Part shown: positions 8,002-24,408 of the stretch, piece after piece
How positions within the stretch are numbered: the first letter of the stretch is position 1
Layout: every line of letters starts with the position of its first letter
Assembly: GCA_027437055.1 (NCBI GenBank)
Contig: DAIAOV010000020.1
Span: forward strand, 1 to 36,287
Length of the DNA: 36,287 nt
Direction: 5' to 3'
From: Legionella sp.
GTDB lineage: Bacteria > Pseudomonadota > Gammaproteobacteria > Legionellales > Legionellaceae
Program-made: the position numbers and the translations under genes
Notes under the pieces: model-generated
The model's database searches: none
What the model saw: only the letters and a program-made list of their open reading frames with translations
What the model was told of the DNA's origin: nothing

Positions 8002-9561
8002 ATGAGCTTATCTTTTTCTATGGGTATCAGTCAAAGCTGGGGCGCACTCTCTGTAATGCAGTCGCCTGGCTTTTATTGGATTAATACAGACAACGCAACA
8101 GATGCCGAACAATTTTGTAAACAAATAATTGTCGCCCTACCAAAAAATGCCAGCGCGGCTCTAATATGCCAAAATGAAGTACCTCACTCTGTCTTAACTG
8201 ATTTCACTACTCTATCTATAGAAAAATTACCCTTATTTACAGTGCCAGAGAAAAAAGCAGCGATTTTACATCTTACTACTGATTTAATACGTGCGCTAAA
8301 GACCAAACAACAATTGTTTATTCTTTTAGCCAACTCCAATCTCTGGCAATTATGCACAACATCTGAAATTCATATGTGGGTACGAAAAACCAGTAAATGG
8401 CTCAATACAGAACAGAGCACCTTATTAATTCTTAACCATGGGCCAGGCAGTAATCAATTATATAATCATTTATTTTCTCAACATCGATTTTTGGATGGGT
8501 TATCCAAATTACAATGGCAAGAAAACGCGTTACAATACAGCATTTCCTGGTGGGCAACGGAAACAGGTTTCACAGCAAATCAAATCCTTTACATGGATAA
8601 AGATCAAAATGATTGGCATATCCAACCGAATAATCAGCAAAAAACCATTTTGTCGCAAAACGATGAATTTCTTTATTTAGCAGATAAGGCAATTCTTGAA
8701 GGAGTGTTGCCTCCATCTGAAAATTGGCAGCTACTAGATAATAATGAATTATTAGTACAGCAGGCAAAACAATTACAGGCTGCCACTATCATTTTTTCAT
8801 TATCAGACAGTAACCGGATGAATGAACTGGCCAAACAAGTTCATTACCTACGTTGCCAATGTGATGATGCATTGAAAATAGCCATACGAGAAATGAGTCA
8901 TAATATACGCTATAACGATGAACGTTTATTATTGGCCTGTGGCGCTAATTTGACAGTCCCTCAAACGGTCTCCCTCCCCAAATTTCTGATTATGCTGGAA
9001 AGTATACAAGGACAGCGATTTAATCGTTTTGTACCTCAAAATTTTGATGCTTTGCTCGGTGCCATGCGCCCTATAGGGCAAAAAGGCTATCTACCCGTAA
9101 AACAATTTACGCAAGTAGTAATGTCACGAATGAACAATACAATCCTCCCAGAAAATAGCAAAGGCCTGTTAGTTGCTTTAGTACCGGAAGAAAATGTAGA
9201 AACAGAACAAGCATTATCTTTATGTGATTTAAAGCGCTCAGGAGATATAGTCACTATCACTACAAATCGATTATTTCTATTTCTTTCAACATGTGCCGTC
9301 AGCGATCTTGATACAGCGCTCAACTTTATTTTCCAACAACCCGTGAATGTGATATTTTCTAATCATGTTGCCTGGGATCTCGATAGACAAATTATTGCTG
9401 AAATCAAACAGCTTGAATTATATTGTAAGACTATAGAAGATAAGGGAGAAATAGTGTCCGAGCAAGAAGTAACAAAACCGGTGCAAACTCCTCCAATAAC
9501 AGTAGCCAGACGAGTTCCTGAACCTATCTCTCTGACTACTAATAGGAATAAAAGGAACTAA
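8002..9561 (+). CDS. bcsE: Cellulose biosynthesis c-di-GMP-binding protein BcsE
   Basis: BcsE is a cytoplasmic accessory protein of type II cellulose synthase. It binds c-di-GMP and recruits the BcsR/BcsQ complex to BcsA for full activity. The whole 519-residue length follows the E. coli protein: MGISQSWGALS at the start, WQLLDNNELL and DERLLLACGAN in the middle, then ESIQGQRFNRFVPQ and GLLVALVPEE. The C-terminal GIL domain keeps the I-site-type R-x-x-D, here Arg412-Ser-Gly-Asp415 in LKRSGDIVTI. The Pro-rich tail ending ARRVPEPI is also typical. It is the first gene of bcsEFG, 125 bases after the preceding gene, and converges with galU-pgi-bcsC. Confidence 0.93.
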   Translation: MSLSFSMGISQSWGALSVMQSPGFYWINTDNATDAEQFCKQIIVALPKNASAALICQNEVPHSVLTDFTTLSIEKLPLFTVPEKKAAILHLTTDLIRALKTKQQLFILLANSNLWQLCTTSEIHMWVRKTSKWLNTEQSTLLILNHGPGSNQLYNHLFSQHRFLDGLSKLQWQENALQYSISWWATETGFTANQILYMDKDQNDWHIQPNNQQKTILSQNDEFLYLADKAILEGVLPPSENWQLLDNNELLVQQAKQLQAATIIFSLSDSNRMNELAKQVHYLRCQCDDALKIAIREMSHNIRYNDERLLLACGANLTVPQTVSLPKFLIMLESIQGQRFNRFVPQNFDALLGAMRPIGQKGYLPVKQFTQVVMSRMNNTILPENSKGLLVALVPEENVETEQALSLCDLKRSGDIVTITTNRLFLFLSTCAVSDLDTALNFIFQQPVNVIFSNHVAWDLDRQIIAEIKQLELYCKTIEDKGEIVSEQEVTKPVQTPPITVARRVPEPISLTTNRNKRN

Positions 9562-9564
9562 ACT

Positions 9565-9600
9565 ATGGATAAAGTGGGTGCTTACTATGGAACTGACTGA
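9565..9600 (+). other. Eleven-codon mini-ORF overlapping the bcsF start
   Basis: An ATG at 9565 preceded by AAGGA at ideal spacing opens a frame of 11 codons (MDKVGAYYGTD) ending at TGA 9598-9600. It overlaps the first codons of bcsF in another frame. It may be a coupling leader that brings ribosomes to bcsF, whose own ribosome-binding site is poor. It could also be chance. Confidence 0.3.
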
Positions 9601-9781
9601 TGTGATTCAAATCATCTCACTATCAGGAGTGCTCTTTTTTTTCCTTGGATGGACAAGTAAGTCCCTTGTACGAAAATGGTTTAGAACCTTACAAAAAATA
9701 TTCTTAAAACCCCGGTATTTAAAAGCTGCTGGCTTTCTAACCAATACCAATCACGTTGCTCAAACTAAGAAAAAAGAATGA
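9587..9781 (+). CDS. bcsF: Cellulose biosynthesis membrane protein BcsF
   Basis: BcsF is a small inner-membrane protein that, in E. coli, anchors BcsE and helps BcsG assemble with the synthase. The protein has one membrane helix (VIQIISLSGVLFFFLGW), a basic stretch, and the family's KPRYLKAAGFL segment (E. coli has KPRYVKPAG). The ATG at 9587 gives 64 residues, near E. coli's 63. A GTG at 9578 in frame is possible but adds three residues with no better ribosome-binding site. The stop overlaps the bcsG start (ATGA), so BcsF and BcsG are translationally coupled. Confidence 0.88.
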   Translation: MELTDVIQIISLSGVLFFFLGWTSKSLVRKWFRTLQKIFLKPRYLKAAGFLTNTNHVAQTKKKE

Positions 9782-11454
9782 TTAATACAGAACAAATCTC
9801 TCAAGAAACTCCATCTTTGTGGCGAAATTGGCGTGGTTTAGGCGCATGGAATTATTATTTCCTATTAAAATTCGCTCTTTTATGGTACGGATATTTGAAT
9901 TTCCATCCCTTCCTTAATCTAGTCTTCCTCTCTTTTTTATTGTTTCCACTACCTTCAATGTTTTTACATCGTTGCCGCAATTGGATAGCGCTGCCTATTG
10001 GCCTTGCTTTATTTTACCATGACACCTGGCTACCCAATATCTATAGCATCATGAGCCAGGGATCTAATATTTTTAAATTCAGTCCTGATTATATACTCGA
10101 ACTCGTAAACCGTTTTATTAACTGGAACATGATAGGAGCCGCATTTGTCTTATTGGTCGCTTATCTTTTTTTATCTCAATGGATTCGCCTTTCTGTATTC
10201 ACCATAGCTATAATCTGTTGGCTCAATATATTAACTATTCAGGGGCCTGCTATTTCTTTACTTCCGATAACCAATAAAACAACAGAACCTCTAAATCAAA
10301 CGACAGGTCAAACGGCAACCGTTTCTAGTCATGTATCTTCTGCACCATCAACAACTAATATGCCGCCAACCAATGAAAATCTGAATGCCTATTTGAATCA
10401 ATTTTATAATACAGAGAAAAAACGAAAAACAACATTCCCTGAGAAATTAGCGTCTGATGCTCAACCTTTTGATCTCTTAATTATCCATATTTGTTCCTTA
10501 GCATGGGCTGATCTAGATGCCGTGCATTTAAGAAATCATCCCCTATGGAGTCAATTTGACATACTTTTTAATCAATTTAATTCAGCAGCATCCTATAGTG
10601 GTCCCGCTGGAATTCGACTACTACGAGCTAGTTGTGGACAGACATCGCACTCTGCACTTTATGCTCCTACAGATCAAGATTGTTATCTATTAGATAACCT
10701 AGCTAAGCTTGGTTTTACTACAGAAGCGATGCTGGATCACAACGGTTTGTTTGGTAATTTCCTTAAGGAATTACAAGAGGATGGAGGCATAGCTAAAGTG
10801 CCATTAATGTCTCACGTCGGTATTAATCAATCGATGATAGAATTTGATGGTAGCCCCCTGTTCAACAACGATGAGCTACTAAATAAATGGCTTAAAAATA
10901 GGCCCGTAAATAATAGCAAAGCAACCGCCACATACTATAACATTATCACATTACATGACGGCAATCGTTCTATAGACAACAGCAAAGAGATACCTTACGA
11001 AGTAAGAGCTAAAAAATTGTTTGATCAGTTAGTTGATTTTTTTTCCATATTAGAGAAATCAGGTCGCAAAGTAGTGGTTGTTGTCATCCCTGAGCATGGC
11101 GCTAATCTTACCGGCGATAAGTTACAAATGCCCGGGTTACGCGACATCCCAAGCCCAGCCATTACCCATATCCCTGTTGGCGTCAAATTGATTGGTACTA
11201 AAGCACAAAATAAAGGCGAGACCGTGCAAATCAATAATCCAAGCAGTTATCTCGCTTTCTCTGAATTGATATCACGTCTGGTAGATGGAAAGTTATTTAC
11301 TTCACCGCAGCTGGATTTAAAAGCACTAACTAATAAATTGCCAGAAACAGCGGCAATTTCTGAAAATGAAGGAGTTATAGTCCTAGAGTATCAGGATAAG
11401 CCTTATGTGCTCCTCAAAGGAGATACGAATTGGGCTCCCTATCCTCAATCGTAA
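9778..11454 (+). CDS. bcsG: Cellulose phosphoethanolamine transferase BcsG
   Basis: BcsG moves phosphoethanolamine from phosphatidylethanolamine to glucose C6 of the growing cellulose chain on the periplasmic side. The N-terminal half has four or five membrane helices (about 25-170) with the conserved YLNFHPFLNLVF and IALPIGLALFYHDTWLP. A Thr/Ser/Pro-rich linker (about 180-205) follows, then an alkaline-phosphatase-like catalytic domain. Zinc and nucleophile residues are present: CSLAWAD, Ser274 in SYSGPAG (E. coli Ser278), LHDGN, and Glu439-His440 in VVVIPEHG. Length (558) equals E. coli (about 559), and it ends in the typical YQDKPYVLLKG...PYPQ. Its presence implies modified pEtN-cellulose rather than plain cellulose. 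Confidence 0.96.
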   Translation: MINTEQISQETPSLWRNWRGLGAWNYYFLLKFALLWYGYLNFHPFLNLVFLSFLLFPLPSMFLHRCRNWIALPIGLALFYHDTWLPNIYSIMSQGSNIFKFSPDYILELVNRFINWNMIGAAFVLLVAYLFLSQWIRLSVFTIAIICWLNILTIQGPAISLLPITNKTTEPLNQTTGQTATVSSHVSSAPSTTNMPPTNENLNAYLNQFYNTEKKRKTTFPEKLASDAQPFDLLIIHICSLAWADLDAVHLRNHPLWSQFDILFNQFNSAASYSGPAGIRLLRASCGQTSHSALYAPTDQDCYLLDNLAKLGFTTEAMLDHNGLFGNFLKELQEDGGIAKVPLMSHVGINQSMIEFDGSPLFNNDELLNKWLKNRPVNNSKATATYYNIITLHDGNRSIDNSKEIPYEVRAKKLFDQLVDFFSILEKSGRKVVVVVIPEHGANLTGDKLQMPGLRDIPSPAITHIPVGVKLIGTKAQNKGETVQINNPSSYLAFSELISRLVDGKLFTSPQLDLKALTNKLPETAAISENEGVIVLEYQDKPYVLLKGDTNWAPYPQS

Positions 11455-11527
11455 AGCAACCAAGCTACAAATAAGTAACACAGGGTTAATCCCTTAAGTT
11501 ATTGAGTGAACAGTTATCAGTCATCAC

Positions 11528-14500
11528 TTAGCTAAAATTCGCATAAGGAGCCAGAGGTCTTATTGGCATATCGAGATCCCCCATCCAACCGTCAAGAGAA
11601 TAACGAAGATAAAAAGATATATGGCTTGGAGTATAATCTCTAGTACGCTGGATATTAACCACACCACCACAAGTCCAATGAGGGCCAAGGCGACGCTCCA
11701 CTAAAGCCAATAATGTATATCCCCACCCAGTATTCGGCCCACCTGTAACAATAGAATTTTGTGCAAGAGTAACTGGTGGATATAAATAGGGCAAAGGATA
11801 AAGCCAGCTATTCTGATTATTCGCCGTAGACCAGGAAATTGAGCCACCAAATTCATAAGACCAATTGGCTATTCTTTGTCTAAGGTCAACAGGAAGAGAA
11901 AACGAAACATAACTCTGTGGACTATAATACCCCCCCTGCCCTAAGGTAAAACCACTCAGATCCTTTTGATAATGCCAAAGCATATTATTAATACCAATAG
12001 ACATTCGAGTATTATCTTCATTAATCAGTTTATAATAATATCCTTCCATCAATCGAACTCGGTAGTTGTTAGCTACATTTTTACCAGTTAATTGATCTGC
12101 GTCCATAAAACCCCATAAGCCAAAAGAGCCACCTCTATCATAACTTAAAGACAAATTAGGACCAGTAGCAACAACACCACCCCATATAATTCCAGTATTA
12201 GGATCTCGAGTTCCTGCTAGGGACAATAATGAATTGGACATAGGACGGCGAGACGCGGCTAAAGTCCAACCCACATGATTGAAATTTCCAGAATAAGCAA
12301 TCCCGCCAACCGTATTAACAACATTAAATCCTAATGGAGTTTCGCCAATATCTACAGCCCATCTATCATTAAACCAACCAAAGGAACCACCAAATCCTCT
12401 AGCTCTTTGCGCTATACCAGTGGTGCAACCATTGATCCCGCAGGTACCAAAATTATTAAAATAGACACCACCATTAGTGGCAAAATTACCAGCACTTACA
12501 TAGACTATATCACCTCGTGCATAGGCGCGCCCATCATATAAAGGCATATCCGCCTGGACTATATCATCTTTGACGATTAACTCCGAAGTTCCGCCGGTTC
12601 CGCTCAAAGTCCAGTTATCATGTTCCGCGGTGATCCGCACCTCCTGTCGACGATAAAGCTGGGCTGCATCAGAACGAATCCCCCGCTTCAACCAATCATC
12701 ATCCTTGTGATTACGCATTAAAAAAGTATAAGTATCATTATCTCTTGGATAAATCGAAGTAATTTTACTTTGAACCATGGCATCTGCATAATCGCTTCTA
12801 GCCATTTGATACTGATGTAATTTTTGCTCCAAGTTTGCTGCATCGCGAAAGATTAATGAAGGCATCATACCTGGAGGAGCTACACGTGCTTGAGGCTTAA
12901 TTCGTTGAAAAATTGTATAGGCGTTATTTAAGTCACCCACAGCAATCCAGGCATTAGCGACTCGCCGTTGCATATTCATGTCTAATGTTGCTTCAGTGGG
13001 TTGTTCTATTCGCAGCAGACGATGAGCTTCCTTAAGTTGACCTCCGGCAACTAAAGCCTCTATTTCTCCTAGAAGTGCATCAGCATTTTGGGGTTCTGCC
13101 GCCCTTACTTTACGGTAATAAGTCAAAGCTTCGTTAACTTTACCATCCTCTAGCGCCCAATCAGCTAATTTTAATGTGATCATAGTCATTTGGGGTTGTT
13201 TTAATAAATACGCAGTAGCCCCAGCCTTATTACCTCGGTCTCTCATTTTTTCGGCGTAATCTATAGCCATTCGCGCATGCTTCCATGCTAATTCTTTTTC
13301 TATACGCTGTACCAAATTCTGGGTATCTTTATCCCAAAGTTTCCTTGGGATTTTATTCAAATAATTTATTGCCTTTTCATCCTGTTTAATTGAGGATAAA
13401 AAAAGCGCATAAATATAAATTATCTTAGGATTATTGTTTTGTTTTGCCACTAATGTTGCTAATAAATCGTTCGCTTTTCCATCTTGTTTCAATTCATGTA
13501 ATACTTGGGCGAGATGATAAGCCAACCAAGGCGAGTCAGGAGTTAATTGGCTTGCCTCCCTATATTTTTGTAATGCCTCAAACCACTGCTTACGAGCAAC
13601 AAAATGCTCAGCCTGTTGCTGCAAAACATCACTTTGTAACTCTCGTCTTATATCTTTAAATTTAAACTGTTTACTCAGTGGTAAGCTGTCTAAATAATTT
13701 AACGCTTTTTGCGGTGATTGCTTTCTATAAATCCCTATCAACCCATACACGGCAATACTACCACTAGGATAGAGGCGCTCTGCCTTTTTATACTCCTGCT
13801 CTGCGGTTACATAATCCTTGCGGGCATAGGCTACATTTCCTAAACCAATTACCGCAAAGTCATTGGTACTATCATACTGAATCGCCAACTGATATTTTTG
13901 CTGAGCTAAAGCAAGATTACCTGCTTTGAAGGCCTTATTTCCTTCTGTATTGAGTAATTGAGACAACGTCGACTGAAGTGATTTAACCCAATTGATATTA
14001 CTTGCATTATTACTTTGAATAATATTATTTTCTTGCAGATACAGATATAAATCTTGCAAATGTTTCACCCCCTCATCCTCATATTCAGGTATTCTTGCCA
14101 CTGTAGACCAATATTCAACAGCAAGAGCAGGAGTAGGTGGATCTTCATGAAAAAGCTCATCGTAGAGTTTTTTTGCTTCAGCTAATTTTCCGGCAACAGT
14201 AAATAGTCTGGCTTGTTGCAATTTTTGCTCTGTCCCAGGTTGTGATAGAGAAACATTGATTTGCGCCTGCTTATAAACCTCAGAGTCAGGAGCAAGTTGC
14301 CTTAACTTTTCCAACAATTGTTCCGCTAAAATCCGATTACCTTTTCTTAAGGCCAGTCTCAGACGGGCAGCAATCACATCAGGATCATCAGGTGCTATCA
14401 GATCTAAGCGATAAAGTGCCTGCTCTACTAAATCATCTCTATAACTGACTTCCCCCGCCAGTACCTGTTGCAATAAAAATTGTTTTGGAGTGACATTATC

Positions 14501-14593
14501 CGCTGCCTGCACTTGAGAAATACATGCGGCACCGAACAAAACTAAGCTGAGTTTTCTGAGCTTAAATTTGACATTCCGGATAGATTTTTTCAA
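11528..14593 (-). CDS. bcsC: Cellulose synthase outer-membrane subunit BcsC
   Basis: BcsC carries the polymer across the periplasm and outer membrane. The 1021-residue protein has a signal peptide (basic start, LSLVLFGAACISQVQA, cut near residue 30). An array of TPR helices follows to about residue 650 (for example AFKAGNLALAQQKYQLAIQY and LALGKVNEA-type repeats). The C-terminal beta-barrel domain, from about 680, shows alternating aromatic strands, ends in Phe-Ser and includes WGYTLLALVERRLGP. E. coli BcsC is about 1150 residues, so a few TPRs may be missing. The start codon is TTG at 14593, with GGA eight bases before it inside the pgi end; no upstream or early ATG exists. It is on the opposite strand from bcsRQABZ, unlike E. 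coli, and is last in galU-pgi-bcsC. Confidence 0.92.
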   Translation of the reverse strand: MKKSIRNVKFKLRKLSLVLFGAACISQVQAADNVTPKQFLLQQVLAGEVSYRDDLVEQALYRLDLIAPDDPDVIAARLRLALRKGNRILAEQLLEKLRQLAPDSEVYKQAQINVSLSQPGTEQKLQQARLFTVAGKLAEAKKLYDELFHEDPPTPALAVEYWSTVARIPEYEDEGVKHLQDLYLYLQENNIIQSNNASNINWVKSLQSTLSQLLNTEGNKAFKAGNLALAQQKYQLAIQYDSTNDFAVIGLGNVAYARKDYVTAEQEYKKAERLYPSGSIAVYGLIGIYRKQSPQKALNYLDSLPLSKQFKFKDIRRELQSDVLQQQAEHFVARKQWFEALQKYREASQLTPDSPWLAYHLAQVLHELKQDGKANDLLATLVAKQNNNPKIIYIYALFLSSIKQDEKAINYLNKIPRKLWDKDTQNLVQRIEKELAWKHARMAIDYAEKMRDRGNKAGATAYLLKQPQMTMITLKLADWALEDGKVNEALTYYRKVRAAEPQNADALLGEIEALVAGGQLKEAHRLLRIEQPTEATLDMNMQRRVANAWIAVGDLNNAYTIFQRIKPQARVAPPGMMPSLIFRDAANLEQKLHQYQMARSDYADAMVQSKITSIYPRDNDTYTFLMRNHKDDDWLKRGIRSDAAQLYRRQEVRITAEHDNWTLSGTGGTSELIVKDDIVQADMPLYDGRAYARGDIVYVSAGNFATNGGVYFNNFGTCGINGCTTGIAQRARGFGGSFGWFNDRWAVDIGETPLGFNVVNTVGGIAYSGNFNHVGWTLAASRRPMSNSLLSLAGTRDPNTGIIWGGVVATGPNLSLSYDRGGSFGLWGFMDADQLTGKNVANNYRVRLMEGYYYKLINEDNTRMSIGINNMLWHYQKDLSGFTLGQGGYYSPQSYVSFSLPVDLRQRIANWSYEFGGSISWSTANNQNSWLYPLPYLYPPVTLAQNSIVTGGPNTGWGYTLLALVERRLGPHWTCGGVVNIQRTRDYTPSHISFYLRYSLDGWMGDLDMPIRPLAPYANFS

Positions 14594-14598
14594 TTAGA

Positions 14599-16056
14599 TT
14601 ATCCAATTATTTGTTTCGATAGCTCAACTCCTGGTTGATCAAATGCATTAATATTCCATATCACACTTTGTGTAAAAACTTTATGCTCGTATAAAGCCAT
14701 TAAAGAGCCAAGCGTTTTAGGAGACCAATCCAATAAAGATACATGATTCGTAGGCGTTTTGCATGATTTAACTTGATGAAAATTATTAATATTCACTCCA
14801 TTGCTTAACACTTTTTGGTGGGCATCTCGTATTTGATTAACCATGCCATTTTCTAAAGCATCTACACTAATCAAATCGGCCGCAACTCTATGTGTTCCTT
14901 GGCATAATAACTGAAAATAGCTATGCTGCACTTGATGCGCAAGCCCCCCCCAAACAATGGGTGCTGTAGAATAATTAACTATTCGCCCATCTTTGTCTAT
15001 TGATTTCCCATTGCTTTCCATATCCAATTGTTGCATATAAGGAATAAAATGCTGTAGATCATAAGAATAAAGCAACATCAGAAGGTTATGAATTTTTAAG
15101 AAATTAATATTCCAAATGCCAAGTAACCCTAAAAGGACGGGTAAGTTGTGGGAGAATTCAGTATTCTGAAAATGCTTATCCATCTCTCGAGCCCCGGCAA
15201 GCATTTCAGAGAAATGCTCGAATCCAATGGCAATACAAGTAATGAGATTAATAGCGGAGCATGTAGAATAACGCCCTCCAACCCAATTCCAGATAGGGAG
15301 CACATTATTTATTCCCAATTGTTTCGCCTTTTTTACATTAGCAGTAACAGCAATAATATGCTTATCAATCTGTTGGGGTTGGCCTATCCACAAAATCGCC
15401 TTATCCATATTACATAAGGTTTCTTTTGTAGTAAATGATTTCGAGGCAATAATAAAAAGTGTGGTTTCAGGGGTCAATTGGCTTAATGCACGTTGAAACT
15501 CATGGGGGTCAATACCAGATATAAAATGAAATTTTAATTTATCTGTTGCAAAGTCAATTAAAGACCTGGTACAAAATTTCGGTCCTAAAAAAGAACCTCC
15601 AATACCTACATTAACAATATCAGTAATGGGTTTTCCTGAATAACCTAACCACGCCCCATTTCTTATTTGAGTAGAGATATCCCGCATTTGCTCACGAACA
15701 TGTAAAATATCAGGAATGATATTGTGGCCATTCACTATGATTTGTTCATCGCCAGAAGTTCTGAGTGCGGTATGTAACGCTGGTTTATGTTCAGAAGTAT
15801 TAATAGGATGACCAGACATCAACTGATTTATTTTTTCCTGCAAACCACACTCATCTGCAAGAGAAAAGAGCAAATGCAATATTTCGTCATCTATAAATTG
15901 TTCGCTATAATCAATTGCAATAGTTGATGCCGTAGCACAATATTTTTTTCCTCTTAGATGTTTATTAGAGTTTAAGCGCAAATGATATTCATCACACTGT
16001 GATTGTTTATAGCACTCTAACTGTTTCCATGAGTCGATTTGTGTTAATTCTAGCAT
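14599..16056 (-). CDS. pgi: Glucose-6-phosphate isomerase
   Basis: Pgi interconverts fructose-6-P and glucose-6-P. At 485 residues it is shorter than E. coli Pgi (549), as in a compact subgroup. Seen motifs: VNVGIGGSFLGP and ASKSFTTKET (phosphate binding), WVGGRYSTCSAINL (signature), the catalytic Glu in MESNGKSI, His in QHSYFQLLCQGTH, and Lys in FDQPGVELSKQ. The usual WGEPGTNGQH is WGGLAHQVQH here, so six residues before the catalytic His differ from the standard form while the His is kept. It sits between galU and bcsC with gaps of six and five bases, clearly one operon, so it seems dedicated to feeding glucose units into UDP-glucose for cellulose. Whether another pgi exists cannot be seen. 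Confidence 0.92.
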   Translation of the reverse strand: MLELTQIDSWKQLECYKQSQCDEYHLRLNSNKHLRGKKYCATASTIAIDYSEQFIDDEILHLLFSLADECGLQEKINQLMSGHPINTSEHKPALHTALRTSGDEQIIVNGHNIIPDILHVREQMRDISTQIRNGAWLGYSGKPITDIVNVGIGGSFLGPKFCTRSLIDFATDKLKFHFISGIDPHEFQRALSQLTPETTLFIIASKSFTTKETLCNMDKAILWIGQPQQIDKHIIAVTANVKKAKQLGINNVLPIWNWVGGRYSTCSAINLITCIAIGFEHFSEMLAGAREMDKHFQNTEFSHNLPVLLGLLGIWNINFLKIHNLLMLLYSYDLQHFIPYMQQLDMESNGKSIDKDGRIVNYSTAPIVWGGLAHQVQHSYFQLLCQGTHRVAADLISVDALENGMVNQIRDAHQKVLSNGVNINNFHQVKSCKTPTNHVSLLDWSPKTLGSLMALYEHKVFTQSVIWNINAFDQPGVELSKQIIG

Positions 16057-16062
16057 AAAATA

Positions 16063-16962
16063 TTACCGTTCAGATTGTTGCCTCTCTAAAGTATCTAGCA
16101 ACCATTTAGAAAAACGCTCCCCTTCTACAGGGTCAACTCTGCCTAAATCTACATTCGCCTTCAAAAAACCTAATATACTTCCACAATCATAACGCGTACC
16201 TTCATAGTGATAAGCTAAAACAGGTTCTTTCTTCAATAAATTTTTAATTGCATCTGTTAATTGAATCTCATCGCCATCAACATGAGGTAATGCCCTAATT
16301 TCATCAAAAATACTTGGACTAAGAATATAACGTCCGACTATAGCGATATTTGAAGGAGCATTTCCCGGAAGTGGTTTCTCAACCAAATCAGTAATATTGA
16401 GAATACGCTCACTCCGTTGTTCCCCCGCGACAATTCCATACTGAGAAGTATTTTCCAAAGGAACGTTCTGCACTGCGAGAACACTAGTTTTATATTCCTT
16501 ATAAATATCGACCATCTGCTTCATGATAGGAGGCTCGCCAATGATCAGATCATCAGCAAGTAATACAGCAAACGCCTCTTCTCCAATTAAACTCTCGGCA
16601 CATAAAACAGCATGTCCTAGACCTAAGGGTTTAGGCTGACGAACATAGAAACACTCCATATCTTCTGGTTTAACTGCATGTACTAGGGATAAAAGCTCCA
16701 TCTTATTATGGGCAAGCAGTTCGCTCTCTAATTCATTCGATATATCAAAATGATCTTCAATAGCCCGTTTATAATGGCAAGTAACAAAAATCATTTGTCG
16801 TATACCAGCAGCATATGCCTCTTCAACCGCATACTGAATTAAAGGTTTATTGACGATAGATAGCATTTCCTTTGGAGCAGCTTTAGTTGCAGGTAAAAAT
16901 CGTGTTCCTAAACCAGCCACAGGAAATACCGCCTTATGTATCGGAGCGTGTGAAGGTTTCAT
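16063..16962 (-). CDS. galU: UTP-glucose-1-phosphate uridylyltransferase
   Basis: GalU makes UDP-glucose, the substrate of BcsA, from glucose-1-P and UTP. The 299-residue protein shows the nucleotide-binding PVAGLGTRFLPATKAAPKEM (14-33), KPLIQYAVEEAYAAGI, LLADDLI with the metal-binding Asp, DLVEKPLPGNAP with the catalytic-site Glu-Lys, and DGDEIQLTDAI. Length fits the bacterial family. It is first in galU-pgi-bcsC and lies 340 bases from the divergent bcsR. Placing the UDP-glucose enzyme in the cellulose locus suggests that precursor supply is coregulated with export. Confidence 0.95.
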   Translation of the reverse strand: MKPSHAPIHKAVFPVAGLGTRFLPATKAAPKEMLSIVNKPLIQYAVEEAYAAGIRQMIFVTCHYKRAIEDHFDISNELESELLAHNKMELLSLVHAVKPEDMECFYVRQPKPLGLGHAVLCAESLIGEEAFAVLLADDLIIGEPPIMKQMVDIYKEYKTSVLAVQNVPLENTSQYGIVAGEQRSERILNITDLVEKPLPGNAPSNIAIVGRYILSPSIFDEIRALPHVDGDEIQLTDAIKNLLKKEPVLAYHYEGTRYDCGSILGFLKANVDLGRVDPVEGERFSKWLLDTLERQQSER

Positions 16963-17142
16963 TGTTAATTAAGCCTTTTATTTTATTTATAGCAAAAAAA
17001 ACAAGTATTATCATTTATCAATAGCATAGAATTGGTAGAAAAAAAATATTAACTTCTATAACAAAATGACAATAGCTCAATAAATTAAATGCAATCTGCG
17101 TACCAACTTTTTTGTGTTCCGTATTACTGTCATTGACTTATC

Positions 17143-17234: not shown

Positions 17235-17241
17235 GAAAATA

Positions 17242-17270
17242 CTAACACCTGCAATAATGATTGCTATACT
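17242..17270 (+). promoter_or_regulatory. Candidate promoter of bcsRQABZ
   Basis: CTAACA (17242-17247) and TATACT (17265-17270) are 17 bases apart, and TGC just before the -10 gives an extended -10 (TGCTATACT). The start would fall near 17277, about 26 bases before the bcsR ATG. Confidence 0.5.
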
Positions 17271-17302
17271 TGAAATAAATGCCATCATTATAAGAACAGA
17301 AA

Positions 17303-17506
17303 ATGGACGGTAAGGCACTAAATTTTAAATATAAAATACCAATAAAACTCCCGGATGACTTATTGGTATTAGCGAATACCTATTCCTTATCCAATCTAAA
17401 TTATGTTGCTATCTCACGGCAAGAATATTTAGTTAAGATGATGGAAAACTGGCCATTATTGACTGAGTTAGCTCAAGTATATTCTAAAGAGAGTAACCAA
17501 TCTTAA
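17303..17506 (+). CDS. bcsR: Cellulose biosynthesis protein BcsR
   Basis: BcsR is a small cytoplasmic protein that pairs with BcsQ, is required for cellulose synthase assembly in E. coli, and takes part in c-di-GMP binding with BcsE. The 67-residue protein keeps the family's C-terminal segment: SLSNLNYVAIS, a QEYL region, and MENWPLLTELAQ (E. coli: SLPDIDYADIS...KRWPLLAEFAQ). The N-terminal 25 residues are less similar. It is first in bcsRQABZ, 20 bases before bcsQ. The ribosome-binding site is weak. Confidence 0.85.
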   Translation: MDGKALNFKYKIPIKLPDDLLVLANTYSLSNLNYVAISRQEYLVKMMENWPLLTELAQVYSKESNQS

Positions 17507-17526
17507 AATTTAAGGATGACTTCTTT

Positions 17527-18279
17527 ATGCCAGTAATCGCATTACAAGGAGTTCGAGGAGGTACTGGAACCACATCAGTAACCGCAGGATTAGCTTGGTC
17601 TTTGCAAAGATTAGGTGCCTCCGTATTAGTCATAGACTATTCCCCCGATAATTTGTTGCGATTGTATTTTAATATGCCATTTACACAACGCCGTGGTTGG
17701 GCTCGCGCTTTGATCGATGGCATTCCCTGGCAAGAAAGTGCAATGAGTTATACTAAATCATTAGATTTTGTACCTTTTGGAACTATTTCCAAGGCAGAAC
17801 AGCTAAAGTTAGAAACGCAGCCTAAAATTGAAATTGACTCAGACTTTTGGCAATCGCAACTCAATTTATCACAATTAATTGCTCACAAGAGTTATGATTG
17901 GATTCTTATGGACCTACCACCCAATCATCTTACTCCATTTGCTTATTACGGATTATCCCTTATTGATTATCGAATTTGTTTATTAAATCCAGATATGTCA
18001 TGTCATATTGGACTGCATCAACAAAAATTGCTTAGTAATTGTTATTTTTTAGTTAATAAATACAACTCATCCTATCTATTGCAACAAAACCTAATGCAAT
18101 TATGGCAACGGACCTTATCTACTCTACTACCGCGAATCATTCACAGTGACCAAATCATTGCAGAATCACTTGCGGCCAAACAACCACCTGGTGAGTATGG
18201 TGCCAATAACCTTGCGGCAAAAGACCTCATGGCTTTGGCCAATTGGTGTTGCACTTCTTTTGTAGAGCACGCATCATGA
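17527..18279 (+). CDS. bcsQ: Cellulose biosynthesis MinD-like ATPase BcsQ
   Basis: BcsQ is a ParA/MinD-type nucleotide-binding protein that, with BcsR and BcsE, forms the cytoplasmic regulatory complex under BcsA. The P-loop is GVRGGTGTTS (8-17), lacking the signature Lys of MinD just as in E. coli BcsQ (VRGGVGTTT). The switch and B motifs are seen as VLVIDYSPDNLLRLYFN and WILMDLPPNH. The C-terminal part AESLAAKQPPGEYGANNLAAKDL is strongly BcsQ-like. Its 250 residues match E. coli. AAGGA stands before the ATG, and the stop overlaps the bcsA start (ATGA). The gene is complete here, unlike the bcsQ nonsense allele of E. coli K-12 lab strains. Confidence 0.94.
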   Translation: MPVIALQGVRGGTGTTSVTAGLAWSLQRLGASVLVIDYSPDNLLRLYFNMPFTQRRGWARALIDGIPWQESAMSYTKSLDFVPFGTISKAEQLKLETQPKIEIDSDFWQSQLNLSQLIAHKSYDWILMDLPPNHLTPFAYYGLSLIDYRICLLNPDMSCHIGLHQQKLLSNCYFLVNKYNSSYLLQQNLMQLWQRTLSTLLPRIIHSDQIIAESLAAKQPPGEYGANNLAAKDLMALANWCCTSFVEHAS

Positions 18280-20891
18280 GCATGACTCTAAGACTATTTT
18301 TGAGTCCCCCTCTCTTTCAAAAACTTGAGGAGCATTATCGAAATTATAGGCTCCATGGAGCCTCTTTTTTAGCAGCATTCCTCGCCAATTTTTTTGGGGG
18401 CTTAGGCTGGCTTTTCCTAAAACTTGAATCACCTAGCTGGCAATGGATCAGGCTAAATCGTTTGCAATTATTTCCTCAAGTCTCTTCAATGCGCCCTAAA
18501 GTCGGGGATATAATGCGCTATATTATCCAATCAGTTTGGTTACTATTAATTTATCCTTCAAGACAAAGCAGTATCACCCATCGCATTAAAGAATGGCAAA
18601 GACAAAGCATCCAGAATTACTATAGCAACGTCAATGCCCTACCTGGTAAAATTCATCACAGCAGAATGGGAAAAAGAACTCGAATTTTTGTCAAAAGTTT
18701 AAGTAACAAAGCCTACAAAACGTTACTAATCTTAGTGAGCATTTTTTCGGGAATCTTATTAATTTTATGCATTACTCAGCCCTTTAATGCGATGCCTCAG
18801 TTTATTTTCTTAATGCTTTTATTATTCATCGCTTTTAGTATTAGGAACATGCCTGGACATATTACTGTCATTATGCTTATAGTCCTTTCATTAATCGTTT
18901 CTTGTCGCTATTTATGGTGGCGTTATAGTGCCACTCTTATCTGGGAAGATTACACAAGCATGATATTTGGTACACTACTTATCATTGCTGAAACTTATAT
19001 TTTTCTAGTCCTTATCCTTGGTTATTTCCAAACCATTTGGCCTTTACAACGCAATCCAGTCCCTCTCCCCGAAGATTATTCTACTTGGCCTACTGTTGAT
19101 ATTATGATACCGACCTATAATGAGGAGTTGAGCGTGATCAAACCTGGAGTTTATGCAGCACTAGGTATGGACTGGCCAAAAGAAAAAATCAATATCTATA
19201 TTCTTGACGATGGAAATCGCCTGTCAGTTAAAAAATTTGCTCAAGAAGCAGGAGTTCATTATATTACTCGTACCAATAATGCTCATGCCAAGGCAGGTAA
19301 TATCAATAATGCATTAAAATATTCTTCAGGTGAATTCATTGTTATTTTTGACTGCGATCATATCCCTACCCATAGTTTTCTCCAATTAACCATAGGCTGG
19401 TTTTTAAAAGATCCTAACTTGGCTATTGTACAAACACCACATCACTTTTTTTCACCCGATCCTTTTGAGCGCAACCTAGGAGCATTTCAAAACATACCTA
19501 ATGAAAGCGCTTTATTCTATGGAATAATACAAGATGGTAATGATTTTTGGGATGCTACTTACTTTTGTGGCTCCGCCGGTATATTACGTCGTAGCGCCTT
19601 AGAAGAGGTTGGAGGTTTTTCTGTAGAAAGCGTTACTGAAGATGCATTGACCTCCATCCGTTTACAGCGTCAGGGCTATACTTCGGCTTACATACGTATC
19701 CCCATGGCTGCGGGTCTAGCAACAGAAAGTTTATCAGGCCATATTGGCCAGCGAATTCGTTGGGCGCGAGGCATGGTACAAATTTTACGGGTAGATAATC
19801 CATTAACAGGCAAAGGGCTCAAGATCGGCCAACGCCTGTGTTATTTCAATGCCATACTCCATTTTTTATCTGGTATTCCGAGATTAATTTTTCTCATTAC
19901 CCCAGTCGCTTTTCTGGCACTATATGCTCGAATTGTTTATGCTCCAGCAGCGATGGTTTTATTATATGGTATCCCTCATATTATTCATGCGGTACTGTCT
20001 AACAGCCGCATTCAGGGAAAATATCGTCATTTTTTATGGAATGAAATTTATGAAACCGTAATGGCTTGGTATATTGCATTACCTACAACTATTGCATTAA
20101 TCAATCCACGCAAAGGAAAGTTTAATGTTACTGTCAAAGGAGGCTTAGTCAAGGAGCGTTATGCTGATTGGGTAACAGCACGCCCCTACATCGTTTTACT
20201 GTGTATTAATTTTATCGGTTTGATCGCCGGACTCTATCGTTTATTTTGGGGGCCAAGTGAGGATATTTTGGCGGTACTCATTACTTTATCCTGGGTAATC
20301 TATAACATGGCAATTATTGGAGGAGCCCTAGGCGTAGACGTTGAAGCCAAACAGATACGTAAATCACATCGCGTTAAATTTTCCATGCCTGCTGCCATTG
20401 CTCGAACTGATGGCCATTTATTTCCTTGTACCTTACGTAATTACTCAGGTAGTGGTGTGGGTATAGAAGTAAATGATCCCTCTTCTCTAAAAAATGGCGA
20501 AAAAATAGCCCTTATATTGAATAAAGGTCTTGATGAATTCCGCTTTCCTTGCACTGTAACTCGGATTTTTAATCATGAAGTGGGAGTGCGCTTGAATAAG
20601 CTTTCTTTAAAACAAAATATAGATTTTATACAATGTACTTTCGCCAGAGCAGATAATTGGGTTCTATGGCAAAAATATATTCCAGAAGAAAAACCATTAG
20701 AAAGTATGGGGCATGTGTTCAAACTAGACTTCCGTGGATATCTGAGTATTATAGAATATGCTCCTCCTTTAATTCGTAGCATATTATCTCATTTAACCAA
20801 TATGCTCATGTGGGGAGTATCGTTTTTTCCCCATAACATTAAAAAGAATCAGGCCGAGGCTGCTAATGCTGTTGGAATAGTTGAAATTTAA
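18276..20891 (+). CDS. bcsA: Cellulose synthase catalytic subunit BcsA
   Basis: BcsA polymerises glucose from UDP-glucose and pushes the chain through the inner membrane. The family-2 glycosyltransferase motifs are intact: DDG (Asp311-312), DCD (359-361), TED (454-456, catalytic base) and QRIRW (492-496). About eight membrane helices flank this domain. The C-terminal PilZ domain has R-KSH-R (695-699) and NYSGSGVG (Asn in place of the common Asp), so c-di-GMP activation is likely. An upstream ATG at 18243 would add 11 unrelated residues. The ATG at 18276 starts MSMTLRLFLSPPL like E. coli BcsA, gives 871 residues, and overlaps the bcsQ stop. The stop overlaps bcsB by one base. Confidence 0.97.
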   Translation: MSMTLRLFLSPPLFQKLEEHYRNYRLHGASFLAAFLANFFGGLGWLFLKLESPSWQWIRLNRLQLFPQVSSMRPKVGDIMRYIIQSVWLLLIYPSRQSSITHRIKEWQRQSIQNYYSNVNALPGKIHHSRMGKRTRIFVKSLSNKAYKTLLILVSIFSGILLILCITQPFNAMPQFIFLMLLLFIAFSIRNMPGHITVIMLIVLSLIVSCRYLWWRYSATLIWEDYTSMIFGTLLIIAETYIFLVLILGYFQTIWPLQRNPVPLPEDYSTWPTVDIMIPTYNEELSVIKPGVYAALGMDWPKEKINIYILDDGNRLSVKKFAQEAGVHYITRTNNAHAKAGNINNALKYSSGEFIVIFDCDHIPTHSFLQLTIGWFLKDPNLAIVQTPHHFFSPDPFERNLGAFQNIPNESALFYGIIQDGNDFWDATYFCGSAGILRRSALEEVGGFSVESVTEDALTSIRLQRQGYTSAYIRIPMAAGLATESLSGHIGQRIRWARGMVQILRVDNPLTGKGLKIGQRLCYFNAILHFLSGIPRLIFLITPVAFLALYARIVYAPAAMVLLYGIPHIIHAVLSNSRIQGKYRHFLWNEIYETVMAWYIALPTTIALINPRKGKFNVTVKGGLVKERYADWVTARPYIVLLCINFIGLIAGLYRLFWGPSEDILAVLITLSWVIYNMAIIGGALGVDVEAKQIRKSHRVKFSMPAAIARTDGHLFPCTLRNYSGSGVGIEVNDPSSLKNGEKIALILNKGLDEFRFPCTVTRIFNHEVGVRLNKLSLKQNIDFIQCTFARADNWVLWQKYIPEEKPLESMGHVFKLDFRGYLSIIEYAPPLIRSILSHLTNMLMWGVSFFPHNIKKNQAEAANAVGIVEI

Positions 20892-23200
20892 TGGATGATA
20901 ACCTAATGACAAAAAAAACAGTCTTTATCATGACATTGTTCTCGATGGCTATCAGTTTAATTGTCCCAATGACTCAAGCTGCGCCAGCTAAAGCCTCCAA
21001 TACTGGTGTAGTAAAAACTCCTCCAACACAAACGCAGCCAACTACAATATCACCCACTACGGATGGAGCTCCTACTACAAAAACAAAGATATTTTTTAAT
21101 AAAGACACTATATCCCAGAAAACTTTTACAATTTTTGGCCTTAATCCTGAAAGCAGGATAGAGTTTAATGTCCGTAAAGATCAACTGGTTACCCAAGCTC
21201 AGTTAAGCCTGCAATTTACTCCTTCTCCCTCATTAATTCCCGTGCAATCTCAATTGAAAATCTACCTTAATGAAGAGCTTGTAGGTCTTATAAGTCTCAC
21301 TGAGGAGATGTTAGGAAAATCCAATCATGTTGAAATGCCCATTGATCCTCGATTTTTTAATGATTTTAACCGGCTAAGAATACAATTTATTGGTCATTAT
21401 AAAGCCATATGCGAAAATCCAGCGAATACGACTGTATGGGTGGAAGTCAGTAAACTCAGTTTTCTCGAACTGACTACACAAACTTTAGAATTAAAAAATG
21501 AACTAACCCATTTCCCTGAACCATTTTTTGATCGATTAGATGATAAACCACTAATACTACCTATGGTGTTTGCGGGACAACCTGATCTAACACAACAACG
21601 AGCTGCAGCAATTTTAGCATCCTGGTTTGGGGTTAAGGCACGATGGCATGGTCAATCATTCCCAGCTTTATTCAATGAATTACCTGAACGTAATGCCATT
21701 ATATTTCTTACTAACTCGCAACGACCTGACTTTCTCAAAAATTATAGAACAGTCAATGCCCCCACAGTAGAAATGATCAGTAATCCAGATACCCCTTACG
21801 TTAAGCTACTTGTGATTTCTGGTCGTGACAGCAACGATTTAATCACTGCAGTAAAAGGAATAGTCACAAGTAACGTATTGTTTCTTGGTTCTAGCGTAAC
21901 CGTGAATCAAGTCAATACTATAGCCCCCCGAAAACCATATGATGCTCCTTATTGGGTTCGAGTCGATAGACCTACCACATTTGAAGAGCTACAACAATTT
22001 AAAGAACAATTACAGACAAAAGGATTTAATCCCAACCCCATTTCACTGCCGTTTAATTTGCCCCCAGATTTATTTCTCCATGGCAGCTCCGGCATAAAGG
22101 TATTATTAAAATATCGTTATACCATACCTCCACCACAAGGTGTTTCACATCTCAATGTTAGTTTGAATAATTATTTCGTCCAAAGTTTTAAATTATTACC
22201 AGCTTCTGAGCAAGAATCAAAGTTGCTTGGTGTGGTGCATTTATCAGATTCCGATGAGCCAACAAAAGAGTTTACGATCCCAGCATTAGACTTGGGAACA
22301 AACAATGAAATGGTATTTGAATTTGCTTATACTAACGCCATAGGAGGAGGAACAATAGATGGACGTTGCGAATCATATACCTTAACAGACAATTATGATT
22401 CTATTGATGGCAACTCTACCATAGATTTCTCAAATTATTACCACTATATAGCAATGCCCGATTTAAAAGCCTTTGTTAGTGCTGGTTTTCCCTTTAGTCG
22501 CCTTGCTGACTTATCTGAAACCTGGATCTTAATCAGTAAACATCCCTTAGCCATAGAAATTACTACGCTATTAAATACTATGGGCAATATAGGCTCTCAG
22601 ACAGGATATCCTGTTTTAGCAATGAACTTAACCGATGACTGGTCACAATTAAAAGACAAAGATGTTGACGTTCTCATCATTGGCACCATACCTGCTGAAC
22701 TCTATGATGACAGTCAAATTAATCTTCTAATGAATAAAACAGAAAGTTGGGTCAACTCCCCATTTCGTCAAGCAGAACTTCCCGATATCCCCATATCCCC
22801 CAGTAATGCAGCAGTAAACAATAAAACTGTAATCAGTTCTGATGGAGTACTTGCAGCCATAATAGGCCTTCAATCGCCTTATCATAAACAACGCAGTATA
22901 GTCGCTCTTCTTGCAGACACACCACGTGGCTTTGAACTGCTAAATCAGGCTCTTTCTGTAAAAACGCTTATTAGCCAAGTATTTGGTTCTGTAGCAGTAA
23001 TTAAAGAGTCCGGAATAAATAGTTTACAAGTTGGCCCTATTTATCATGTAGGTTATTTACCATGGTACATGAAAATTTGGCTTGCTCTGCAACAACACCC
23101 GGTCAATATGGCTTTTGCTTCCATATTTGTTGCACTGATTATAACATTTATCTTATGGCGTGCTTTATCGGCCTTTAGTCGTCGTCGTTTAAAGAAATAG
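20891..23200 (+). CDS. bcsB: Cellulose synthase periplasmic subunit BcsB
   Basis: BcsB is the periplasmic partner of BcsA. It has carbohydrate-binding and flavodoxin-like domains and a C-terminal membrane anchor that BcsA needs for activity. The 769-residue product has a signal peptide (TKKTVFIMTLFSMAISLIVP, cut near AAPA), a Thr/Pro-rich spacer, the BcsB region with SLNNYFVQSFKLLP and GRCESYTLTDNYDSIDGNSTI (CBD2/FD2), and a final helix (about 738-760) with a basic tail. The ATG at 20891 overlaps the bcsA stop. An in-frame ATG at 20906 removes five acidic residues (MDDNL) and gives a more normal signal peptide; either start is possible. Length is near E. coli (779). Confidence 0.95.
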   Translation: MDDNLMTKKTVFIMTLFSMAISLIVPMTQAAPAKASNTGVVKTPPTQTQPTTISPTTDGAPTTKTKIFFNKDTISQKTFTIFGLNPESRIEFNVRKDQLVTQAQLSLQFTPSPSLIPVQSQLKIYLNEELVGLISLTEEMLGKSNHVEMPIDPRFFNDFNRLRIQFIGHYKAICENPANTTVWVEVSKLSFLELTTQTLELKNELTHFPEPFFDRLDDKPLILPMVFAGQPDLTQQRAAAILASWFGVKARWHGQSFPALFNELPERNAIIFLTNSQRPDFLKNYRTVNAPTVEMISNPDTPYVKLLVISGRDSNDLITAVKGIVTSNVLFLGSSVTVNQVNTIAPRKPYDAPYWVRVDRPTTFEELQQFKEQLQTKGFNPNPISLPFNLPPDLFLHGSSGIKVLLKYRYTIPPPQGVSHLNVSLNNYFVQSFKLLPASEQESKLLGVVHLSDSDEPTKEFTIPALDLGTNNEMVFEFAYTNAIGGGTIDGRCESYTLTDNYDSIDGNSTIDFSNYYHYIAMPDLKAFVSAGFPFSRLADLSETWILISKHPLAIEITTLLNTMGNIGSQTGYPVLAMNLTDDWSQLKDKDVDVLIIGTIPAELYDDSQINLLMNKTESWVNSPFRQAELPDIPISPSNAAVNNKTVISSDGVLAAIIGLQSPYHKQRSIVALLADTPRGFELLNQALSVKTLISQVFGSVAVIKESGINSLQVGPIYHVGYLPWYMKIWLALQQHPVNMAFASIFVALIITFILWRALSAFSRRRLKK

Positions 23201-23289
23201 AGCGACAGGGATGGAAAAACAGTCATCCATACAAATTTAAAAAGTATAAGTAAATACCTACGTCTAATGATGTCACTGGATTACATAAG

Positions 23290-24408
23290 ATGAAACATCA
23301 ATATACTCTCACTTTGAAAATTTTGAGCATCATTTTCTTGTTTCTATTACTTCATTCTAGTAGCTTAAAAACCATTGTGTATTGGCCTGAATGGCTTGAT
23401 TTCAAACGGCTATATATTAGTGATGATGGACGAGTAGTCGATTCATCATCACCTAATAAAATCACCACCTCCGAAGGCCAAAGTTATGCCTTATTTTTTG
23501 CCTTGATTGCTAACGATCGTGTGATGTTTGATAAGTTAGTTCGCTGGACCGAAAATAATCTTGCCGCAGGAGATTTGGGCGCACAAATACCCGCATGGTT
23601 ATGGGGAAAAAATCCACAAAAACAATGGACGATTCTAGATCCTAATTCTGCATCCGATGCTGATCAATGGATAGCCTATGCTCTGCTTGAAGCAGGACGT
23701 TTATGGAAGAATCAGCATTATGAAGCCTTAGGCACTCAATTGCTTCGACGCATTTTAAAAGAAGAAGTAGCTGATATTCCTGGGATAGGGAAAATGGTAT
23801 TACCTGGCAAAATGGGTTTTGTACACGGAGACAACTGGCGGCTTAACCCTAGTTATTTGCCACCTCAGGTTCTTGCTAGATTTGTTTCCCTAAGCAGTGA
23901 GTGGAAAGATATTGAGCAAAATAGTTTGCACTTTTTAGTCGACTCTTCACCCAAAGGTTACTCGCCCGATTGGATTATTTGGAATAAAAGTGCGGGTTGG
24001 CAACCCGATCAAGAGCAACCTAATATCGGTAGTTATAATGCGATCCGTGTCTATTTATGGATTGGCATGCTCGCTGATGAACTAGGCTATAAAAAAGAAC
24101 TAACTCAACATTTCTTACCTATGGTACAGCTCACACGACAGCAAGGCACGCCACCAGAACAGATTAACACGGTCACAGGTATCTATTCTGGTAAAGGGCC
24201 TATAGGATTCTCAGCGGCTTTATTACCTCTTATGGCCGACTCCCCCGCCCTTAAAGTACAACGCTTACGTGTAGATAAATCACCTATAATTCCGGGAGAC
24301 TATTACAATGCAGTACTCCGACTTTTTGGCCAAGGTTGGGATCAGCATCATTATCGTTTTAATCCTCAGGGTGAGCTTATTCCTGAATGGAATTTGAGAG
24401 GATCCTAA
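23290..24408 (+). CDS. bcsZ: Periplasmic endo-1,4-beta-glucanase BcsZ (GH8)
   Basis: BcsZ is the cellulase of the cellulose locus. It trims or frees chains in the periplasm and influences polymer length. The glycosyl hydrolase family 8 signature is clear: TTSEGQSYALFFAL with catalytic acid Glu62, and DPNSASDADQWIAYAL with the Asp pair near 123-125 (base region). GDNWRLNPSYLPPQ and IGSYNAIRVYLW are also typical. A hydrophobic N-terminus (LKILSIIFLFLLLHSSS) is a signal peptide. Its 372 residues match E. coli (368). An 89-base gap after bcsB with a small GGATG/CATCC hairpin may tune expression, but it is most likely in the same operon. Confidence 0.95.
   Translation: MKHQYTLTLKILSIIFLFLLLHSSSLKTIVYWPEWLDFKRLYISDDGRVVDSSSPNKITTSEGQSYALFFALIANDRVMFDKLVRWTENNLAAGDLGAQIPAWLWGKNPQKQWTILDPNSASDADQWIAYALLEAGRLWKNQHYEALGTQLLRRILKEEVADIPGIGKMVLPGKMGFVHGDNWRLNPSYLPPQVLARFVSLSSEWKDIEQNSLHFLVDSSPKGYSPDWIIWNKSAGWQPDQEQPNIGSYNAIRVYLWIGMLADELGYKKELTQHFLPMVQLTRQQGTPPEQINTVTGIYSGKGPIGFSAALLPLMADSPALKVQRLRVDKSPIIPGDYYNAVLRLFGQGWDQHHYRFNPQGELIPEWNLRGS

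What the first reader, a model, noticed from the sequence alone, without database searches (positions are those of the whole stretch)
8002..24408. Complete type II (pEtN) cellulose locus in a Legionella-like chromosome, rearranged compared with E. coli
All of bcsE, F, G, R, Q, A, B, Z and C are present with intact motifs. Unlike E. coli, bcsC is on the opposite strand from bcsRQABZ and is the last gene of a galU-pgi-bcsC operon placed between bcsEFG and bcsRQABZ. Cellulose is not a textbook trait of Legionella, so a complete synthase with BcsG suggests a modified-cellulose matrix in its life cycle.
Basis: partly seen in the sequence, partly recalled or inferred. Interest (0 to 1): 0.75.

Follow-up and report, generated by a model that had tools for sequence, protein, structure and literature searches.

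The report
Legionella cellulose locus with captured galU-pgi
This is a complete set of genes for making and probably decorating cellulose in a relative of Legionella fallonii, a species already shown to make cellulose; its odd gene order is usual for the genus and has two sugar-supply genes built into it.

Summary
bcsE, F, G, R, Q, A, B, Z and C are open genes, and bcsC ends a galU-pgi-bcsC run on the opposite strand. The window is a contig of a fragmented Legionella genome near L. fallonii.

The main point is in print: L. fallonii carries bcs and bcsEFG genes "with some differences in organization" and binds calcofluor (PMC4256840). G059, which is L. fallonii LLAP-10, has the same locus at 62-90% protein identity.

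Not seen in the papers I searched:
- 20 of 45 genus genomes have BcsG, BcsC and a strong BcsB match; four have BcsE over cut-off.
- bcsC directly follows galU-pgi in 18 of 20 loci, so this order is the genus norm.
- The four bcsE-bearing loci adjoin radC; in 30 genomes without them radC and epmA lie 0.1-7.6 kb apart.
- In those four genomes the bcs-linked galU is the only GalU found.

Lateral transfer of the package and vertical descent with relocation remain undecided. BcsZ has Asn where E. coli has catalytic Asp243, BcsC is shorter, and a second bcsAB pair lies elsewhere.

The parts
8002..9561 (+). bcsE, 519 aa, secondary c-di-GMP sensor with an RSGD motif
   Evidence: Pfam PF10995 600 bits; RxGD at residue 416 region
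9578..9781 (+). bcsF, 67 aa, membrane peptide; keeps the KPRY-K-AG tail of E. coli BcsF
   Evidence: Pfam PF11120 52.7 bits, TIGR03493 58.6 bits over cut-off; alignment
9778..11454 (+). bcsG, 558 aa, phosphoethanolamine transferase
   Evidence: Pfam PF11658 709.6 bits; C243/S278/H396/E442/H443 of E. coli kept
11528..14593 (-). bcsC, 1021 aa, TPR and outer-membrane channel, TTG start; lacks the equivalent of E. coli residues 187-335
   Evidence: NF008520 1204.6 bits, BCSC_C 351.5 bits; alignment
14599..16056 (-). pgi, 485 aa, glucose-6-phosphate isomerase
   Evidence: Pfam PF00342, NF001211 over cut-off
16063..16962 (-). galU, 299 aa, UTP-glucose-1-phosphate uridylyltransferase; only GalU found in this genome
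   Evidence: TIGR01099 363 bits over cut-off; genus search
17303..17506 (+). bcsR, 67 aa
   Evidence: NF040717 48.3 bits over cut-off; Pfam 24.6 bits, just under cut-off
17527..18279 (+). bcsQ, 250 aa, MinD-like ATPase
   Evidence: Pfam PF06564 268 bits, TIGR03371 over cut-off
18243..20891 (+). bcsA, 882 aa, cellulose synthase with N-terminal domain and PilZ domain, TTG start
   Evidence: NF008558 1337 bits over residues 12-874; motifs
20891..23200 (+). bcsB, 769 aa, periplasmic subunit
   Evidence: NF008325 1025 bits over cut-off
23290..24408 (+). bcsZ, 372 aa, GH8 endoglucanase; Glu55 kept, Asn at E. coli Asp243
   Evidence: NF008305 495 bits; alignments
6964..7647 (+). radC, left flank of the locus
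   Evidence: Pfam RadC; flank in all four bcsE-bearing loci
28923..29879 (-). epmA-like class II tRNA-synthetase-type gene, first gene of the right flank, followed by suf genes
   Evidence: Pfam tRNA-synt_2 (the name epmA is mine); adjacency to radC in 30 other genomes
3815..5206 (-). PgmG-like phosphoglucomutase/phosphomannomutase, a likely glucose-1-phosphate source, outside the locus
   Evidence: NF046027 471 bits, below its 600-bit cut-off; Pfam

Best explanation
This is a full type II (E. coli-like) cellulose secretion locus. BcsA, switched on by c-di-GMP through its PilZ domain, polymerises glucose from UDP-glucose and passes the chain through BcsB. BcsG, held by the N-terminal domain of BcsA, adds phosphoethanolamine from membrane lipid. 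BcsF holds BcsE, which keeps BcsR and BcsQ on the synthase. BcsZ trims stray chains and BcsC carries the product over the outer membrane. Pgi and GalU, transcribed just ahead of bcsC, tie hexose phosphate and UDP-glucose supply to secretion. Shown here: the genes, their order, conserved residues and distribution. Inferred: the reactions, the modification of the product, the co-transcription, and any role in the life cycle. The locus is a close relative of the published L. fallonii one, and the galU-pgi-bcsC order reflects bcs genes assembled around the genus's own galU-pgi pair.
For: Family matches over whole lengths and conserved residues of BcsA, BcsE and BcsG. BcsA matches the full-length E. 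coli-type model over residues 12-874, which includes the N-terminal region; PMC11470070 passages say that region recruits BcsG and that BcsF recruits BcsE-R-Q. Same layout in L. fallonii LLAP-10 (identity of G059), a species reported calcofluor-positive. bcsC directly after pgi in 18 of 20 Legionella loci. galU-pgi pair next to truD in 8 of 8 bcs-less genomes fetched. Gaps of 5-6 nt between galU, pgi and bcsC.
Against: BcsZ has Asn at the E. coli Asp243 position, and an E. coli D243A mutant showed no cellulase activity and much reduced secretion (PMC11379886 passages); but 16 of 18 Legionella BcsZ have Asn, L. fallonii among them. BcsC is shorter than in E. coli. A promoter scan of 7600-24700 found 62 sites against 58.4 expected by chance, so it says nothing about transcription units. 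No product has been analysed for this organism.
Confidence: 0.85

Rival explanations
1. The locus is a horizontally moved package: bcsEFG, bcsC-pgi-galU and bcsRQABZ entered the radC-epmA interval in the ancestor of the four bcsE-bearing species, bringing GalU into a lineage without it.
For: radC and epmA lie 0.1-7.6 kb apart in 30 genomes without the locus, against 21.3 kb in the window and about 24.6 and 33.4 kb in G059 and G057. 12 of the 13 other genomes in the same half of the species tree lack GalU. The bcs-linked pgi groups with galU-linked pgi genes of the rest of the genus (0.992), apart from the second pgi of G000 and G059.
Against: GalU presence needs three changes under losses only and three under the cheapest mixed history, so it favours neither. 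In the galU tree the four branch outside most others rather than inside a donor group. GC content of the locus (0.37-0.40) does not stand out in the window. Deep branches near the four species are weakly supported (0.186, 0.543).
Confidence: 0.45
2. Vertical descent: the ancestor of the genus had bcs genes beside galU-pgi; the four species moved the block to radC-epmA and kept bcsEF, other lineages lost bcsEF or everything.
For: bcsC-pgi-galU adjacency is shared by both kinds of locus at two chromosomal sites. Equal parsimony for galU. Legionella BcsA (without G065) forms one clade, though only at 0.737, and BcsG at 0.378.
Against: Needs losses of GalU in three separate groups of close relatives and a move to a new site. 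BcsA/BcsB of the 14 second-kind loci are closer to the window genome's second pair than to the window pair.
Confidence: 0.45
3. The locus is decayed or inactive, a relic on its way to loss.
For: BcsZ Asn at position 243. Decay is seen in relatives: bcsG split in G057, BcsG of L. gormanii (G008) lacks three of five residues checked, bcsQ cut short in G016.
Against: All eleven genes of the window locus are open and 62-90% identical to those of L. fallonii, reported calcofluor-positive. The BcsZ Asn is shared by 16 of 18 Legionella and occurs in 5 of 54 other BcsZ.
Confidence: 0.08
4. The locus is contamination in the assembly, from another bacterium.
For: The genome is fragmented with 2.32% estimated contamination.
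Against: The contig carries radC, dfp, dut and suf genes 92-96% identical to L. fallonii beside the locus, and G000 pairs with L. fallonii in the species tree with support 1.0.
Confidence: 0.02

Closest known systems
Legionella fallonii LLAP-10 cellulose locus (lfa3354-lfa3363; PMC4256840)
   Same: Same genes, order, strands and flanks in G059, which is that strain; a separate two-gene bcsAB pair too, probably the paper's lfa2987-lfa2988 (my inference; the figure is not held).
   Different: 62-90% protein identity, so a different species. The paper's text does not mention galU or pgi in the section I read.
E. coli K-12 bcsRQABZC and bcsEFG
   Same: All nine bcs genes, with BcsG, BcsA and BcsE motifs kept.
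   Different: In E. coli bcsC follows bcsZ and no galU or pgi lies in the stretch shown. BcsC is 1021 rather than 1157 aa and BcsZ has Asn for Asp243.
bcs loci without bcsE/F in other Legionella (L. anisa, L. bozemanae, L. parisiensis, L. steelei, L. steigerwaltii, L. gormanii and others)
   Same: bcsG, bcsC-pgi-galU and bcsABZ.
   Different: Placed around galU-pgi-truD in the proC-recQ interval, with an ankyrin-repeat gene before bcsR; no bcsE over cut-off and no BcsF-like ORF seen upstream of bcsG. The paper had reported L. anisa and L. dumoffii without bcsE and bcsF.

Membership tests
Type II (E. coli-like) bcs system | bcsE, bcsF and bcsG present | tested here: met
   Pfam matches over curated cut-offs
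Type II (E. coli-like) bcs system | bcsR and bcsQ present | tested here: met
   NCBIfam BcsR 48.3 bits over cut-off, BcsQ over TIGR03371 cut-off; Pfam BcsR just under cut-off
Type II (E. coli-like) bcs system | BcsA, BcsB, BcsC and BcsZ core | tested here: met
   Over cut-off with NCBIfam equivalog models
Type II (E. coli-like) bcs system | BcsA with E. coli-type N-terminal domain | tested here: met
   NF008558 matches residues 12-874 against model 1-864 of 872; its fold was not modelled
Type II (E. coli-like) bcs system | c-di-GMP motifs in BcsA and BcsE | tested here: met
   RKSHR and NYSGSG in BcsA, RSGD in BcsE
Type II (E. coli-like) bcs system | BcsG catalytic residues | tested here: met
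   CSHEH at E. coli 243, 278, 396, 442, 443. S278 is named in a paper passage; the other four are recalled
Type II (E. coli-like) bcs system | BcsZ catalytic pair Glu55 and Asp243 | tested here: not met
   Glu55 kept, Asp243 is Asn; the pair is named in PMC11379886. Asn also occurs in 5 of 54 BcsZ of non-Legionella BcsG loci, so I treat it as a property of the enzyme, not of the system
Type II (E. coli-like) bcs system | Product is phosphoethanolamine cellulose | not testable with these tools
   No product data for this organism
L. fallonii-type locus | Same gene order and same radC flank | tested here: met
   G059, G057 and G060 alignments; G060's contig ends before the epmA side, and G057 carries extra genes inside the block

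The most novel reading that the evidence does not exclude
The locus is a self-contained cellulose package that carries its own UDP-glucose supply and moved between Legionella lineages; after arrival its galU became the only GalU of the recipient lineage, and in some species its pgi the only intact Pgi, so central sugar metabolism now depends on genes placed inside a cellulose operon.
Probability: 0.4. Interest if true: 0.5.

Novelty: new member of a known kind. Interest (0 to 1): 0.33.

Why it matters
It shows that complete cellulose gene sets are spread over a good part of Legionella (20 of 45 genomes), in two chromosomal settings that share one trait: the sugar-supply genes galU and pgi sit directly ahead of bcsC. 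The 16 Legionella genomes with BcsG but no BcsE over cut-off offer a natural comparison for how the modifying enzyme works without the BcsE-BcsF arm. The Asn in BcsZ raises a clear question about the catalytic base of this enzyme in Legionella.

Tried and rejected
Contamination was considered and set aside because of the flanks. A decayed locus was considered and set aside because all eleven genes are open. A transfer signature in base composition was looked for and not seen. Promoter and terminator scans gave no more than chance: 62 against 58.4 and 10 against 12.3. No Rfam match and no tRNA in the window. I first read GalU distribution as favouring transfer; a parsimony count gave three changes either way, and I lowered the transfer reading. 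A class-wide search gave few outgroups: BcsG in 6 of 370 genomes, two of them Legionella, so trees rest mainly on Enterobacterales. The 322-aa gene beside the second bcsAB pair looked like a nucleotide cyclase by eye, but Pfam (0.069) and PDB (0.017) matches are weak. The search with BcsQ was not specific: all 45 genomes and all 14 controls match, so only strong matches (268 bits or more) were counted. I did not predict structures.

Full report
What is there. bcsE, bcsF and bcsG run on the plus strand from 8002 to 11454. bcsC, pgi and galU run on the minus strand from 11528 to 16962, with 5-6 nt between genes. bcsR, bcsQ, bcsA, bcsB and bcsZ run on the plus strand from 17303 to 24408. Against E. 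coli proteins, BcsG keeps the five residues checked, BcsA its DCD, TED, QRIRW and PilZ motifs, and BcsE its RxGD motif. Two departures: BcsC lacks the equivalent of E. coli residues 187-335, and BcsZ has Asn where E. coli has Asp243.

Whose genome. The window is contig C122 of a fragmented genome (290 contigs, 88.35% complete, 2.32% contamination). In a 12-marker tree of 43 genus genomes (3,601 columns, some genomes with four markers only, midpoint root) it pairs with G059 at support 1.0. G059 is L. fallonii LLAP-10: two 8,001-base pieces of its smaller contigs are 100% identical to that strain's plasmids, with matching record lengths.

What was known. Gomez-Valero and colleagues (PMC4256840; passages and section 9 read; the figure is not held) reported a complete cellulose machinery in L. 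fallonii in two clusters, 'with some differences in organization', strong calcofluor fluorescence in contrast to L. pneumophila, and homologous genes except bcsE and bcsF in L. anisa and L. dumoffii. Papers found by full-text searches showed me nothing further on Legionella bcs loci; these cover an open-licence library only, and I judged most of them from listings.

Distribution. BcsG is in 20 of 45 genus genomes, BcsC in the same 20. BcsB matches 24 of 45, of which the same 20 score 613 bits or more and four (G005, G009, G028, G033) 112 bits or less. BcsE passes its cut-off in 4 of 45 (G000, G057, G059, G060); five more genomes have sub-threshold matches of 18.9-21.3 bits. Strong BcsQ matches (268 bits or more) are in 14 of 45, with a 50-residue piece in G016; weaker MinD-like matches occur everywhere, controls included.

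Two kinds of locus. In the four bcsE-bearing genomes the block starts after radC; in G000, G057 and G059 it ends before epmA, while the G060 contig ends earlier. radC and epmA lie 103-7,595 bp apart in 30 genomes without such a locus; in 9 more with radC the fetched stretch did not hold epmA, and 2 of 45 had no radC match. In 14 others the genes surround galU-pgi-truD between proC and recQ: bcsG and bcsC on one side, an ankyrin-repeat gene, bcsR, bcsQ (10 of 14), bcsA, bcsB and bcsZ on the other (G030 is split over two contigs; the names proC, recQ and aroB are mine by eye, TruD is). G026 and G065 have different orders nearby. Eight bcs-less genomes fetched have pgi-galU-truD together; seven of them show proC and recQ at the two sides. 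bcsC directly follows pgi in 18 of 20 loci. Among 71 non-Legionella BcsG loci, the best 80 of 226 and mostly Enterobacterales, all 71 have BcsE and none a pgi or galU match over 80 bits within the stretch held, up to 10 kb a side.

GalU and Pgi. The window galU has matches over 200 bits in 32 of 45 genomes; 13 lack one. Of the 13 other genomes in the same half of the species tree, 12 lack it and G027 has one. In the four bcsE-bearing genomes the bcs-linked galU is the only one over 45 bits. G000 and G059 have a second pgi at 53% identity, without galU beside it in G000; G060 has only the bcs-linked pgi, and the other copy of G057 is in pieces. In the pgi tree the bcs-linked copies group with the galU-linked genes of the genus (0.992) and not with the second copies. 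A parsimony count of galU gives three changes under losses only and three under any history, so it does not decide between transfer and loss.

A second synthase pair. The genome has another bcsA-bcsB pair on C66 without bcsC beside it, also in L. fallonii at 90%. In the BcsA tree this pair groups with the 14 second-kind loci (0.988), not with the window BcsA. Beside it lies a 322-aa gene, also in L. fallonii at 92%, with only weak cyclase-like matches.

BcsZ. Asn replaces Asp243 in 16 of 18 Legionella BcsZ; G008 and G030 have Asp. Among 54 BcsZ of the non-Legionella loci, 48 have Asp, 5 Asn and one a gap. PMC11379886 (passages) reports that E. coli E55A and D243A enzymes were inactive in a plate assay and that D243A much reduced secretion. 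L. fallonii, with Asn, was reported calcofluor-positive, so Asn is at least compatible with calcofluor binding; whether the enzyme is active is open.

How it works. The mechanism is taken from E. coli work (PMC11470070, passages): BcsA's N-terminal domain recruits three BcsG, and a BcsF dimer recruits BcsE with BcsR and BcsQ. The window has every one of these parts. The link of galU-pgi to bcsC is an inference from gene order; transcription was not tested, and the promoter scan was at chance level.

Verdict. A true, complete, E. coli-like cellulose locus, a close relative of a published one. The gene order is a genus trait, and its galU-pgi content is the most interesting part.

Noticed in passing
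G000:C66, locus L003 4233-9089: A second bcsA-bcsB pair without bcsC beside it, closer to the BcsA of other Legionella loci than to the window pair; also in L. fallonii.
   Followed up: partly
L003 3215-4183: A 322-aa gene next to the second pair with weak class III nucleotide cyclase-like matches; 92% identical in L. fallonii.
   Followed up: partly
window 23290-24408: BcsZ has Asn at E. coli Asp243, as in 16 of 18 Legionella BcsZ.
   Followed up: yes
L116 9271-10908 (L. gormanii, G008): BcsG has Asp, Asn and Gln at three of five catalytic positions, so it may be inactive; strong BcsQ match also absent.
   Followed up: no
L138 9954-13072 (G057): bcsG is in two pieces, with a 281-aa reverse ORF between them.
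   Followed up: no
window 24534-26144: A 536-aa ORF after bcsZ with no Pfam or NCBIfam match; 72% identical at the same place in L. fallonii, no match in the G057 and G060 stretches.
   Followed up: partly
window 1660-2226: A protein with an F-box domain, a eukaryotic-like domain.
   Followed up: no
G005, G009, G028, G033, and extra places in G034 and G059: Weak, often partial BcsB-like matches (137 bits or less), some in pairs of pieces, of unknown role.
   Followed up: no
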